Below, one piece after another: positions 16,705-21,372 of a DNA stretch of 21,577 nucleotides; the first letter of the stretch is position 1; the number at the start of each line of letters is the position of its first letter. Source of the stretch: a virus; the IMG/VR virus record IMGVR_UViG_3300006735_000314, positions 1 to 21,577 of that record, one strand, 5' to 3'. The notes beneath the pieces are model-generated. The model was not told the DNA's origin, did no database searches, and saw only the letters and a list, made by a program, of their open reading frames with translations. Made by a program: the position numbers and the translations under genes.

Positions 16705-16734
16705 AAAAAGGGGAATAGAAATATTCCCCTTTTT
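16705..16734. terminator. Strong bidirectional rho-independent terminator
   Basis: A perfect 13-bp stem (AAAAAGGGGAATA with TATTCCCCTTTTT) closes on a GAAA tetraloop. It starts 10 nt after the stop of the rightward 73-aa gene and lies 4 nt beyond the stop of the leftward 26-codon ORF. The A/T ends supply a U-run in both directions, so it can end both convergent transcripts. Confidence 0.92.
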
Positions 16735-16738
16735 GTTT

Positions 16739-16819
16739 TTAGATGTTTCGGACATCAAGTCCAAATTTCATCCACATCATTTCGTTATGCATGATGTAGT
16801 CTAATGAAATTAACTTCAT
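16739..16819 (-). CDS. Micro-ORF, 26 aa, with strong ribosome site and terminator
   Basis: A leftward ATG at 16819 is preceded by AGGAG (16825-16829) at a 5-nt spacing. The frame runs 26 codons to a TAA four bases before the shared terminator hairpin. The peptide begins MKLISLDYIMHNEMMWMKFG and ends L-D-V-R-N-I. It is Met-rich (six of 26) and carries no clear membrane span. The ribosome site, the fit to the terminator, and the 78-nt gap after the HNH gene argue that it is a real small gene. It could be the last cistron of the DUF262-HNH operon. Its function is unknown, and a 26-codon frame can arise by chance. Confidence 0.5.
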   Translation of the reverse strand: MKLISLDYIMHNEMMWMKFGLDVRNI

Positions 16820-16897
16820 TCTTACTCCTAACTCGACCTGAGTTTAGTATGTTTCCATTCAATAATGGTCTATACCATTGACAATACTCGACATTGG

Positions 16898-17149
16898 TTA
16901 AATTAAATCTTCTACTGATATTACTTCGACTTTATTACAAGGTTTACAACTAACAAAAGTATTTTCTTTTGTCGTTACTCCACCTCGTTCAATTCCGTCT
17001 GAGTGTGGTATTTTGTGTGCCTTGATTGCTTTGTGTAAAGGTACTTCTTTTCCACAACGCTGACACTTCTTTCCACACTCAAACCAAAGTTCTTCAAACT
17101 CTTTATCAGAGATAACTCTTCGTTTGTCTACTCGTCTTATGAATGACAT
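16898..17149 (-). CDS. Small HNH endonuclease, partner of the DUF262 protein
   Basis: The 83-aa protein is essentially one HNH domain. It has Zn-binding Cys pairs at C29/C32 (CQRC) and C68/C71 (CKPCN). H45 and the nearby acidic and His residues lie in AHKIPHSDGIERGGVTTKEN, where N63 is the central Asn. N72 takes the last H/N position. It would be expected to bind one divalent metal and cut DNA. The ATG overlaps the stop of the DUF262 gene by one base (TAATG), so the two are translationally coupled. In GmrSD-type enzymes the DUF262 domain and the HNH-type nuclease (DUF1524) act together, while here they are on separate chains. A stand-alone homing-type HNH nuclease is the alternative, but the coupling favours a functional pair. 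Confidence 0.85.
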   Translation of the reverse strand: MSFIRRVDKRRVISDKEFEELWFECGKKCQRCGKEVPLHKAIKAHKIPHSDGIERGGVTTKENTFVSCKPCNKVEVISVEDLI

Positions 17150-18297
17150 TATTTAATTACTTTTAACAACTCATCAACGAGTGTATCTCTTCTGAACTCT
17201 ACATCGGTAGCACTTGAACCAAGTCTTGTCTTTTGTCCGTATGCTGTTTCTGTTATACCAATGTCTATATTATCTTGAGTTTGTTTACATAACTGAACGT
17301 GTTTGTCAAAAAACCACTCTCCAAACTCTTCCCAGTTATCTACTTTATGTTTGTTATCAACAACATACTTGATAATCATAGCTAAGTTTAAAAGAATACT
17401 TGAAGTATGATACTTCCAATGTGTAGTTTCGTTTTCGATTACCTTGAACATAATATCAAGAACCTTTTTGACTTTCTTGTCATCTTTAAATTCATTTTTG
17501 TAAGCTGTTGAATTATACATTTCGTCTAATGATTTATTATTAAATCCATTTACATAAGCAATACCATTGACCACGGAAACAATTTTTGCCAATAGTTCAT
17601 CTTGAACCATTTTCTTAAAGGTCATACGAATATATCTACCTTTTAAATTGTCTTCCATTGTGAATAGTTTGTGTGGTTCAAGTCTTGCTGTGTCTCTAAC
17701 ATATTCTGCAATATGAGAATTAATAGCATTTCTTTTTTCTTGTGCAGTCATATTGTTTAAGTCATTTAAATCCAGAAACATTTTGTGAATTAAATCCTCG
17801 TCATCTGAACAATTACAAATCATTGAAAATGAATGATTTTCAAATTTATCTGCAACTTCTGGGAATTGGGATTTGATTTCTGAAAAACTGCAATTATCAA
17901 GATTGTATTTTCTTGTAACCACTTTGTTATTTTTAATTTGGGTATAAACTGGTCTACACACCCCTAATCGAAACTTATCTTCCATAAAGTCTCTAATCGT
18001 TAAAGTTCGTTGTTGACCATCAATCATTTCAGTTGTGTATCCTAAAATCTTTAATGTATCTTCTTCATTAATTCTATTAGGATTGTCTATTTCCATATCC
18101 AATATTTCACTTGAAACTCGTGAATAAATTGGTGGAATGATTGATTGATTTTCTATTATATTTGTAATCAAGTTTTGTTGCCATTTAACATTGTCTTTGG
18201 CAATATATGCTCTTTGATAAGCTGGGTTGAAATTGATTACTTTTGATTGTTTATATAGGTCCTTGATTGGGACATCTATTCGGACTTGTCTATCCAT
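17149..18297 (-). CDS. DUF262 (ParB/GmrS-like) protein
   Basis: The 382-aa protein carries the DUF262 signature. FNPAYQRAYIAKDNVKWQ (23-40) matches the 'P-x-Y-Q-R-x-Y-x-W' motif. EMIDGQQRTLTIRDF (90-104) is the near-invariant 'DGQQRLT-type' motif of the ParB/Srx-like nucleotide-binding fold. KMFLDLNDLNNMTAQEKRNA (162-181) matches the 'F-x-x-LN... L-x-x-x-E-x-R-N-A' segment. The C-terminal half is helical and lacks the HxxP nuclease motif of DUF1524. The nuclease is instead the coupled downstream HNH gene. DUF262 proteins include GmrS (restriction of glucosylated DNA) and other NTP-dependent defence factors. A phage copy may exclude rival phages. It starts after AAGGAG in a 147-bp leader, so it probably has its own promoter. 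Confidence 0.85.
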   Translation of the reverse strand: MDRQVRIDVPIKDLYKQSKVINFNPAYQRAYIAKDNVKWQQNLITNIIENQSIIPPIYSRVSSEILDMEIDNPNRINEEDTLKILGYTTEMIDGQQRTLTIRDFMEDKFRLGVCRPVYTQIKNNKVVTRKYNLDNCSFSEIKSQFPEVADKFENHSFSMICNCSDDEDLIHKMFLDLNDLNNMTAQEKRNAINSHIAEYVRDTARLEPHKLFTMEDNLKGRYIRMTFKKMVQDELLAKIVSVVNGIAYVNGFNNKSLDEMYNSTAYKNEFKDDKKVKKVLDIMFKVIENETTHWKYHTSSILLNLAMIIKYVVDNKHKVDNWEEFGEWFFDKHVQLCKQTQDNIDIGITETAYGQKTRLGSSATDVEFRRDTLVDELLKVIK

Positions 18298-18444
18298 TTT
18301 TTACTCCTTGGCTTGCGCCTGTTTATTATTATTTCTCATTATTGAAAGTGATAATTTCTCATAAATTATGTTTCAATTAATTTAAATACCTCTTATGAAG
18401 TACATTAATACATATCAGACTAATTTCTGAAAATGTAATTTATT
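18298..18444 (-). promoter_or_regulatory. 147-bp intergenic leader of the DUF262-HNH operon
   Basis: This is a non-coding, AT-rich gap between the sigma gene stop and the DUF262 start. On the leftward strand it holds TTGAAA as a possible -35 and, nearer the gene, the repeated ATGAGAAATwAT element (see separate entry). A GC-richer patch, GGCGCAAGCC, comes just before the AAGGAG ribosome site. I see no convincing terminator for the sigma operon and no small ORF with a ribosome site. A promoter here is likely but its exact boxes are not clear. Confidence 0.45.
18328..18362 (-). repeat. Direct repeat ATGAGAAATwAT in the DUF262 leader (candidate operator)
   Basis: Two 12-bp copies (18328-18339 and 18351-18362) differ at one base and lie 23 bp apart, start to start (about two helical turns), 31 bp or more upstream of the DUF262 ATG. 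The spacing suits paired binding of a regulator on one DNA face. Chance in AT-rich sequence is not excluded. Confidence 0.35.
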
Positions 18445-19421: not shown

Positions 19422-20197
19422 TTTTTCTCTCCAAACAATTCATTAAATATATCTTTAGCGTCTGTTGATTTGGTAAACTTTTCTTTTACTTCTGTGTCAA
19501 CTGCTTCTTTGATTTTACTTACTGACTTTTGAACTTTCTCACTCTCAACTTCATCTCCCGCTCTCCATTGGTCTGATTCAATGTGAGTAGCCATCATATC
19601 TGCTTGGTGTAAGATGTAAGCAATATTACTTCTTAATCCAAAGTCTGGATTATATCCTTTTAGATATTTTTCATTTGCTTCCTCATACAATCCGTCAGTC
19701 AATCTTAATCCAATAAACTCCCATTGTGTCATAGAAATTCCAAAGTGTTGTAGTATCCAACATGCTCTATCCGTTACGGTCATATATTGTAATTCTTTGT
19801 TATGAGTAAAAATCTCTCCCAAAGTTTTAACTCTCCAATCATTATCTTGTGGAACATAATAATCGTGTTCTAAATCTCCGACCTTTCCTAAGTCGTGATG
19901 TAGAGCTGCAAAGATTAGTTCTTCATCTGTAAAGTTTATCATAGCACCTTGTTTTTCCCAAATGTCTTTTAGTAGTTGTGCATTTTTTACCACATGCAAT
20001 ATGTGTTCTACATAACCACCAACCATAGCATTATGGAAAGTAGCTCTACCACTTGCTGGAGCCATAACCATTCTGTCCTCAAAGTAATCATACATCTTGT
20101 TGAGTTTTTCTAATCTATCTCCACTAAATGTATTGTTGACAATTGTTCTAAGTTCGTTCCAATTATCTGTTATTTGTTTTTCTGTTAGTTGTTTCAT
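19418..20197 (-). CDS. HD-domain metal-dependent phosphohydrolase
   Basis: The 259-aa protein carries the HD-superfamily metal ligands in order: H65 in the segment NAMVGGYVEHILHVV, H101-D102 in AALHHDLGKVGD, and D200 in ILHQADMMATHIESD. Extra histidines that may be ligands are H131 and H151. The 'GG-x-x-E-H' element before the HD pair resembles the YhaM-type (3'-5' exonuclease) and related HD phosphohydrolases. Known substrates of the superfamily range from nucleotides to RNA and cyclic dinucleotides. The substrate here cannot be told from sequence. The C-terminal ~45 residues are charged and helical. It overlaps both neighbours by 4 nt (ATGA), between the DruA-like gene and the membrane-anchored protein. 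A role in nucleotide salvage, RNA turnover or degrading host signalling nucleotides is possible. Confidence 0.85.
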   Translation of the reverse strand: MKQLTEKQITDNWNELRTIVNNTFSGDRLEKLNKMYDYFEDRMVMAPASGRATFHNAMVGGYVEHILHVVKNAQLLKDIWEKQGAMINFTDEELIFAALHHDLGKVGDLEHDYYVPQDNDWRVKTLGEIFTHNKELQYMTVTDRACWILQHFGISMTQWEFIGLRLTDGLYEEANEKYLKGYNPDFGLRSNIAYILHQADMMATHIESDQWRAGDEVESEKVQKSVSKIKEAVDTEVKEKFTKSTDAKDIFNELFGEKK

Positions 20198-21372
20198 CTA
20201 CCAATTTCTCCTAAGTATTTTTCTTTTGTTTCTTCCCAAGAAGTATTGATGATATCTTTATAATATAACTTCTCTGGTTTGATTCTGTTTTGTTCTAATA
20301 ATTTTGTATATCGTTTGATTGCTTTTGATTTCCACCAATTACTAATATACTCTACATCTTGTTCGTATTTAGGTTTCATAATTAATTCATCTTCTGTGAT
20401 TTCACTTCTTAGAAACTCTTTTCCGTTTTGATATAAATCTGCATAATAACAACCTCGTTTAAATCCGTGTTCATATTCTGCTCGTTTAATTCCTAACTCT
20501 TTATAAATCAATTGTAGAATTTTTTGTTTAATACCTGTTACGGGTTGTCCAGTTGTTGATGTTGTAACCCTATCGTATTCTTCTCGTCTATTATCTTTTA
20601 ACCAATGGTGCCAGACATCATAAAATTTATCGTCTGGTTTCAAACTAATCTTACCTTTGGTTTCTCCAAGAGTTTTCCAATGTGGTATTCCATTATACAT
20701 TGAGTGAATACCATACAAAGCAGTAGTAGAAAAACCAACTAAGGTTTGACCATATTGTTTTTTCCAAGTATCACGAACTCCACTTGATGTAACCATAGCC
20801 GCTACTAACTTACCACCCAAGAAATTAAATCCAAGTGGTTGTGTGCAACAAATCGTAGAACCGATTGCAGTATGATTTAGTTTTCCGTCTTTGAACTTAT
20901 TGTCTTTTGTCCAACCGATAAACTCATCTCTAACTCCTAATGAAGTTACATCACTACCTAATGAGATTACACCCAATACTTTATTTGTAGTTTTGTCTTT
21001 AACGAAAAACTTTACATTACGACCTGGATTTGCTGTGAACTCCATAGAGTGAATTAGTCGTCTTGTTAATATCCAATCATCACCTTGTCCTTGTTCAACA
21101 ACTTCTATGACTGGTTCAATTGCATTTATTTCTGATATAGTTAATTCTTTATTGTAGATATCTGTTGGTGTCCAAAGTGTTTTCTCTAACCTATCAATAC
21201 TATCTGCTCTATCCATATAGTATTGTGGGTCCTTGTTGAACTCTTCCCACTTCTTCCATAGTGTTGCTTCTTGGACTGACTGAGATTTTAGATAGTCCAT
21301 ATTGTCTATGAACTTTTGTTTTTCTCCGTCATAATCAAATTCGGGTGTCCCGAAAAAGTTTTCAAAACTCAT
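20194..21372 (-). CDS. Protein resembling the DUF4338/DruA family
   Basis: The 392-aa protein has, at residues ~132-242, an arrangement I recognise from DUF4338/DruA proteins of the Druantia defence system. It reads VLGVISLGSDVTSLGVRDEF, then IGW (148-154, the 'RD-x-x-IGW' motif), a segment of hydrophobic and Leu/Ala-rich sequence (LGGKLVAAMV), DTWKKQYGQTLVGFST, and HWKTLGETKGK (231-241, the 'W-x-x-LG-x-T-x-G' motif). The N-terminal ~100 residues are helical and the C-terminal ~150 include a basic helical region. The biochemical activity of DUF4338 is not established. It starts after GAGG seven bases upstream and overlaps the HD gene by 4 nt. A DruA-like gene in a phage may be a rival-exclusion or anti-defence component, or may have an ordinary phage function. 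The family call is by eye. Confidence 0.6.
   Translation of the reverse strand: MSFENFFGTPEFDYDGEKQKFIDNMDYLKSQSVQEATLWKKWEEFNKDPQYYMDRADSIDRLEKTLWTPTDIYNKELTISEINAIEPVIEVVEQGQGDDWILTRRLIHSMEFTANPGRNVKFFVKDKTTNKVLGVISLGSDVTSLGVRDEFIGWTKDNKFKDGKLNHTAIGSTICCTQPLGFNFLGGKLVAAMVTSSGVRDTWKKQYGQTLVGFSTTALYGIHSMYNGIPHWKTLGETKGKISLKPDDKFYDVWHHWLKDNRREEYDRVTTSTTGQPVTGIKQKILQLIYKELGIKRAEYEHGFKRGCYYADLYQNGKEFLRSEITEDELIMKPKYEQDVEYISNWWKSKAIKRYTKLLEQNRIKPEKLYYKDIINTSWEETKEKYLGEIGR

What the first reader, a model, noticed from the sequence alone, without database searches (positions are those of the whole stretch)
16898..18297. Phage-borne DUF262 + HNH pair that looks like a split GmrSD-type restriction module
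The sequence shows DUF262 motifs (P-A-Y-Q-R, I-D-G-Q-Q-R-T-L) in one gene, and a compact HNH nuclease whose ATG overlaps its stop. Established: GmrSD-type systems pair a DUF262 NTPase domain with an HNH-type DUF1524 nuclease and restrict modified foreign DNA. Inference: this phage carries a two-chain version, with the nuclease a canonical Cys4-type HNH instead of DUF1524, perhaps to exclude co-infecting phages. It has its own leader and sits between regulatory and virion blocks, an accessory location.
Basis: partly seen in the sequence, partly recalled or inferred. Interest (0 to 1): 0.65.

Follow-up and report, generated by a model that had tools for sequence, protein, structure and literature searches.

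The report
Phage two-chain DUF262–HNH nuclease module
An uncultured marine virus of bacteria carries a DNA-cutting enzyme of a known anti-virus type as two overlapping genes, where all its close relatives carry it as one gene, in a spot of the genome where related viruses swap nucleases; it is probably a weapon against competing DNA, but what it cuts is unknown.

Summary
17149-18297(-) encodes a DUF262/GmrSD_N protein with an intact DGQQR motif; 16898-17149(-) encodes an 83-aa Cys4 HNH protein; they overlap by one base (TAATG). The pair recurs in three further contigs with the same junction (plus one HNH fragment), and both genes are under purifying selection. Profile searches showed what it is: the closest relatives (43% identity) and every full-length phage homologue in the same clade carry DUF262 and HNH in one chain, and the window's HNH aligns end to end with that C-terminal domain. 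So this is a genuine two-chain form of a fused DUF262-HNH family, most likely made by gene fission. It is not GmrSD proper: DUF1524 is absent, and bacteria already have DUF262 fused to a canonical HNH. The pair is an insert with its own leader in a site that is empty in most related phages and otherwise holds other, often nuclease-like, genes. In relatives the fused gene lies directly before a GT4-type glycosyltransferase gene. The likeliest mechanism is NTP-gated HNH cleavage of competing DNA. Target and activity are untested, and the usual metal-binding Asp before the catalytic His is Ala here. Known in kind; moderately interesting as a natural two-chain, phage-borne variant.

The parts
17149..18297 (-). 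DUF262 (GmrSD_N, ParB/Srx-like NTPase) protein, 382 aa; NPAYQR and DGQQR motifs intact; helical C-terminal part
   Evidence: fold by its 43%-identical relative L158
16898..17149 (-). HNH nuclease-like protein, 83 aa; C29xxC32, H45, N63, C68xxC71, N72; residue 44 is Ala where most relatives have Asp or His
17147..17151 (-). TAATG stop/start overlap, suggesting translational coupling; same junction in L005, L006 and L004
18298..18444 (-). 147-bp leader with ribosome-binding site AAGGAG (18304-18309) and a GGCGCAAGCC hairpin-like element (18310-18319)
18408..18441 (-). promoter-like segment AAATTACATTTTCAGAAATTAGTCTGATATGTAT, shared (33 of 36 nt) with the leader of a different cargo gene at the same site in L026/L040; contains TCAGA-N6-TCTGA
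   Evidence: shuffles at most 23 of 36
16705..16734 (.). terminator hairpin, the boundary of the insertion site, present in empty sites too
16739..16819 (-). possible 26-aa ORF with its own AGGAG, after the HNH gene; probably dispensable, as one sister contig (L007) lacks the segment
   Evidence: sequence reading

Best explanation
The pair is a two-chain form of a DUF262-HNH enzyme family that is otherwise encoded as one chain; it most likely arose by gene fission (homology shown; direction inferred by parsimony). As in BrxU and SspE, the DUF262 chain probably binds and hydrolyses NTP when it senses a feature of DNA and thereby licenses the partner HNH chain to nick or cut (inferred from those families). 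Expressed from its own leader inside a swappable cargo site of a T4-like marine phage, it would attack competing DNA in the infected cell: co-infecting phages, satellites or plasmids (inferred). What it recognises and how the phage's own DNA is spared are unknown.
For: Domains and motifs. Same pair and TAATG junction in three further contigs, purifying selection. Fused relatives: L158 matches the DUF262 chain (43% over 383 columns) and the HNH chain (41% over 75) in order; five of five fused proteins tested match both. A profile of the family hits the window's two ORFs at 2e-92 and 8e-18. Tree joins window to fused L158/L159 at 100/99. HNH profile scan: 7 loci, all DUF262-linked. Fold: DUF262 part nearest SspE (Z 7.5, 140 aligned, 4.2 A) and BrxU (Z 7.5, 282 aligned, 13.9 A), HNH part nearest Gme HNH nickase (Z 6.8, 66 aligned, 2.6 A) and Cas9 HNH. 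Accessory site: 43 of 74 distinct sites empty, 25 with over 300 bp of cargo. Mechanism of relatives: PMC8565348, PMC13251355. A two-chain GmrSD stayed active (PMC4437046). A phage HNH acting against a co-infecting phage: PMC11620839.
Against: Residue 44, just before the catalytic His45, is Ala in all four window-type copies and Gly in L158/L159; the matching D507A mutation abolished Eco94GmrSD activity (PMC4437046). Fold matches are in the middling Z range and Foldseek E-values are weak (0.02 at best). No target, no self-protection factor and no activity were tested. There is no relative in 50,697 cultured phage records at tblastn sensitivity, so no phenotype to lean on. The same site also takes homing-type nucleases.
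Confidence: 0.55

Rival explanations
1. It is a mobile, homing-type nuclease: the complex cuts phages with the empty site, and repair copies the insert in; DUF262 supplies DNA recognition.
For: The site is empty in most relatives and elsewhere holds an endonuclease VII-type HNH gene and an HNH + sigma-4 gene that match homing or recombination nucleases. Insertion lies precisely between a stop codon and a terminator. Nuclease genes sit at boundaries of phage gene exchange (PMC10448857). The shared leader could be a recombination joint.
Against: DUF262 NTPases are not known homing modules (general knowledge). The family occurs at two different sites and beside a glycosyltransferase gene in 32 of 34 informative loci. 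Only one distinct site of 74 holds it, low for an active homing gene.
Confidence: 0.2
2. The HNH chain has lost catalysis (Ala44) and the pair now works as an NTP-gated DNA-binding or regulatory complex.
For: Asp/His to Ala/Gly at the metal-ligand position in this subclade; D507A is inactive in Eco94GmrSD.
Against: His45, Asn63, Asn72 and all four zinc-type cysteines are kept; dN/dS of HNH is about 0.1; position 44 was judged by sequence alignment only.
Confidence: 0.13
3. It degrades host DNA for nucleotide supply or blocks the host, not competing phages.
For: Phages commonly encode host-DNA-degrading nucleases (general knowledge); its own leader would allow early expression (inference).
Against: Accessory and absent from most relatives, whereas host-degradation genes tend to be core; the NTPase sensor architecture is that of self/non-self discrimination enzymes.
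Confidence: 0.08

Closest known systems
Fused DUF262-HNH proteins of uncultured marine phages (L158/L159 and about 23 others; no published name found)
   Same: DUF262 with DGQQR, helical middle, C-terminal HNH with the GG-T-N signature; phage-borne; accessory position
   Different: One chain instead of two; usually at another site (after a DruA-like gene), followed by a glycosyltransferase gene; most have Asp before the catalytic His
GmrSD / BrxU type IV restriction enzymes
   Same: DUF262 NTPase coupled to a His-Me-finger nuclease; BrxU is among the best fold matches
   Different: Nuclease is PF01844-type Cys4 HNH, not DUF1524; no evidence yet of modified-DNA specificity; two chains
SspE (phosphorothioate-sensing)
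   Same: DUF262 domain is the best or joint-best fold match; C-terminal HNH-type nickase
   Different: No phosphorothioation genes recognised in the window; sequence similarity weak (PADLOC SspE E=0.0043)
Bacterial single-chain DUF262 proteins with canonical HNH (L198, L199, L200, L204, L209, L213)
   Same: Same two domains in the same order, canonical HNH rather than DUF1524
   Different: Cellular, single chain, low identity (about 21-25%); His or Asp before the catalytic His
Free-standing phage homing nucleases (seg/mob type)
   Same: Small HNH gene in a phage accessory site
   Different: Constant partner with a DUF262 NTPase

Membership tests
GmrSD type IV restriction enzyme | DUF262 (PF03235) with DGQQR NTPase motif | tested here: met
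   (just under the Pfam cut-off in one search, over it in the other)
GmrSD type IV restriction enzyme | DUF1524 (PF07510) nuclease domain with (D/E)HxxP..N | tested here: not met
   No PF07510 match up to E=1 in the HNH protein; PF01844 HNH matched instead; Ala-His in place of Asp-His
GmrSD type IV restriction enzyme | Cleaves modified DNA, NTP-stimulated | not testable with these tools
   needs biochemistry
SspE | Phosphorothioation genes (sspABCD) nearby | tested here: inconclusive
   none recognised in the window proteins scanned, but the record is a fragment and the host is unknown
DUF262-HNH (canonical HNH) family | DUF262 and PF01844-type HNH as one functional unit in this order | tested here: met
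   here as two chains
Homing endonuclease | Nuclease gene occurs independently of the partner | tested here: not met
   all 7 loci found with the HNH profile are DUF262-linked or lie in the same synteny
Homing endonuclease | Cuts the cognate empty site | not testable with these tools
   empty site defined; cutting needs an assay
Septu (PtuAB) | PtuA ATPase next to the HNH PtuB | tested here: not met
   partner is DUF262, not PtuA; PtuB match weak, E=0.0058

The most novel reading that the evidence does not exclude
In these marine phages a DUF262-HNH (or another sensor + nuclease) gene and a GT4-type glycosyltransferase with a winged-helix-like C-terminal tail form a phage-owned modify-self, cut-other module that phages use against each other; the window carries the nuclease half, in two chains, moved to a second cargo site.
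Probability: 0.18. Interest if true: 0.75.

Novelty: new variant of a known kind. Interest (0 to 1): 0.45.

Why it matters
DUF262 NTPases coupled to HNH-fold nucleases are known from bacterial defence. A conserved, naturally two-chain version on a marine phage, within a family that has no tblastn relative of the window proteins in 50,697 cultured phage records, suggests that phages use this enzyme class for their own competition. It also gives a natural system in which sensor and nuclease can be purified apart and recombined, to test how NTP hydrolysis licenses the HNH; the known two-chain GmrS/GmrD was a cloning artefact.

Tried and rejected
Cultured phages: no tblastn hit for either window protein; two distant DUF262 hits for fused L158 without a clear HNH partner listed. 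DNA glucosylation as the partner modification: no thymidylate-synthase/hydroxymethylase family match over the cut-off in ten related virus records up to 137 kb, though all may be incomplete, and the glycosyltransferase fold matches general GT4 enzymes, so a DNA-modifying role stays unproven. The 26-aa ORF as an immunity peptide: missing in L007. A sequencing error as the cause of the split: rejected, three other contigs carry the same TAATG. Sigma-70 scan of the region: no more hits than shuffles. A literature search for NsnA, the best PADLOC match (E=1.9e-9), found nothing relevant. Structure prediction of the two-chain complex was not available; the fused relative L158 was folded instead. 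The HNHs of L158 and L161 were first missed by a regular expression and found on reading the sequence.

Full report
WHAT IS THERE. Two minus-strand ORFs lie at the stated place: 17149-18297 (382 aa) and 16898-17149 (83 aa). The first matches Pfam GmrSD_N/DUF262 (E=1.1e-7, half a bit under the curated cut-off; over the cut-off in the genome search) and keeps NPAYQR and DGQQR. The second matches the canonical HNH family PF01844 (E=9.1e-7, over the cut-off), with two CxxC pairs, His45, Asn63 and Asn72. The stop of the first and the start of the second overlap as TAATG.

IT IS REAL. Three other uncultured-virus contigs carry the same two genes with the same junction and the same neighbours, and a fourth record holds a fragment of the HNH. 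One copy differs from the window by 3 bases in the DUF262 gene; the other two are 81-87% identical in DUF262 protein where it is covered. dN/dS is 0.10-0.13 for HNH and 0.24-0.40 for the DUF262 part compared, so both proteins are maintained.

WHAT IT DERIVES FROM. A profile search brought in 41 viral and 16 bacterial loci. In the phage clade of the window each full-length homologue is one chain of about 450-570 aa with an HNH at its C-terminus. In L158, the closest complete relative, residues 12-375 align with the DUF262 chain (43%) and 384-454 with the HNH chain (41%), in order. A profile of 28 homologues (27 fused proteins plus the window's DUF262 chain) hits the window's two ORFs separately, at E=2e-92 and 8e-18; the DUF262 hit is partly by construction, the HNH hit is not. 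The tree puts the window with fused L158/L159 at 100/99 support. The plain reading is one gene fission in the window's lineage. Two chains should still be able to work: the original two-chain GmrS/GmrD of E. coli CT596 was a cloning artefact (stop plus re-initiation) that remained active (PMC4437046).

DO THE TWO GENES BELONG TOGETHER? A scan of the viral contigs with an HNH profile returned 7 loci: four of the window's synteny (one cut off by the contig end before the DUF262 gene) and three fused. The search is limited by its seed peptides, but it gives no support for independence.

FOLD. The predicted structure of fused L158 (mean pLDDT 80) has a DUF262 part whose top solved matches are SspE and BrxU, followed by ParB proteins, and an HNH part whose top matches are the Gme HNH nickase and Cas9 HNH domains. 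Z-scores are 6.8-7.5, in the range that can also arise by chance, but they agree with the sequence evidence.

THE SITE. In phages that share the flanking genes, the pair's position, between the stop of a 241-aa gene and a terminator hairpin, is empty (about 50 bp) in 43 of 74 distinct cases and holds more than 300 bp in 25. Other cargo there includes an endonuclease VII-type HNH gene, an HNH + sigma-4 gene, a ParB-like protein and large unassigned proteins with GQHR-like motifs (motif reading for the last). The window's leader shares 33 of 36 nt with the leader of such a large cargo gene in L026/L040 (shuffles at most 23), so cargo genes bring, or recombine within, a common promoter-like segment.

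THE RELATIVES' CONTEXT. The fused genes lie at a second variable site, in many loci after a DruA-like (DUF4338) gene, and are followed directly by a glycosyltransferase gene in 32 of 34 informative loci, several of them near-identical contigs. Among phages sampled by flanking genes alone, all 12 distinct filled copies of this site hold the glycosyltransferase, preceded by different genes: DUF262-HNH, GIY-YIG-like, ParB-like and others. The glycosyltransferase is GT4-like; its last 60 residues are predicted as three helices and a hairpin, which looks like a winged helix. The window itself has an empty second site and no glycosyltransferase. Whether the glycosyltransferase acts on DNA is unknown; no hydroxymethylase-family gene over the cut-off was found in ten related records.

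MECHANISM. For BrxU and SspE it is shown that NTP binding or hydrolysis in DUF262 controls enzyme state and DNA cleavage (PMC8565348; PMC13251355). By homology the window pair should be an NTP-gated nickase or nuclease assembled from two chains. That the target is competing phage or plasmid DNA is inference from the accessory site, the own leader and the precedent of a phage HNH that blocks a co-infecting phage (PMC11620839). The main caution is Ala44: relatives have Asp or His there (L158/L159 Gly), and the corresponding D507A mutant of Eco94GmrSD is dead.

CLASS AND NOVELTY. Not GmrSD (DUF1524 absent). It is a member of a DUF262 + canonical HNH family that also occurs in bacteria in one chain. 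What is new is the conserved two-chain form and the phage setting. The finding is real, mostly explained, and of moderate interest.

Noticed in passing
window 16735-18444; L011-L156: Cargo hotspot between the 241-aa gene and a terminator: 43 of 74 distinct sites empty, the rest with varied genes, several nuclease-like.
   Followed up: yes
L014-L072 (between DruA-like and HD-domain genes); window 20194-20197 (empty there): Second hotspot: all 12 distinct filled sites hold a GT4-like glycosyltransferase gene preceded by a variable gene (DUF262-HNH, GIY-YIG-like, ParB-like, GHKL-like by eye).
   Followed up: partly
L190:4340-5698 and homologues: Glycosyltransferase with a predicted winged-helix-like tail, no relative in cultured phages by tblastn; may act on DNA.
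   Followed up: partly
window 18408-18441; L026, L040, L075, L030: Promoter-like segment with TCAGA-N6-TCTGA (imperfect or absent in L075 and L030) shared by different cargo genes at the same site.
   Followed up: partly
window 20194-21372(-): DruA-like (DUF4338) gene, Pfam E=1.1e-24, PADLOC DruA E=1.4e-23; conserved upstream of fused DUF262-HNH genes in many phages, also present in Pelagibacter and Synechococcus phages.
   Followed up: partly
L183:3466-4845 and L199:2308-3531: A viral and a Paceibacterota DUF262-HNH protein group together at 100/99, suggesting gene exchange between a phage and a patescibacterium, or a prophage.
   Followed up: no
L121:4808-5584: HNH motif joined to a sigma-70 region 4 domain in one 259-aa phage protein.
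   Followed up: no
window 16739-16819(-): Possible 26-aa ORF with ribosome-binding site after the HNH gene; present in three sister contigs, absent in L007.
   Followed up: partly
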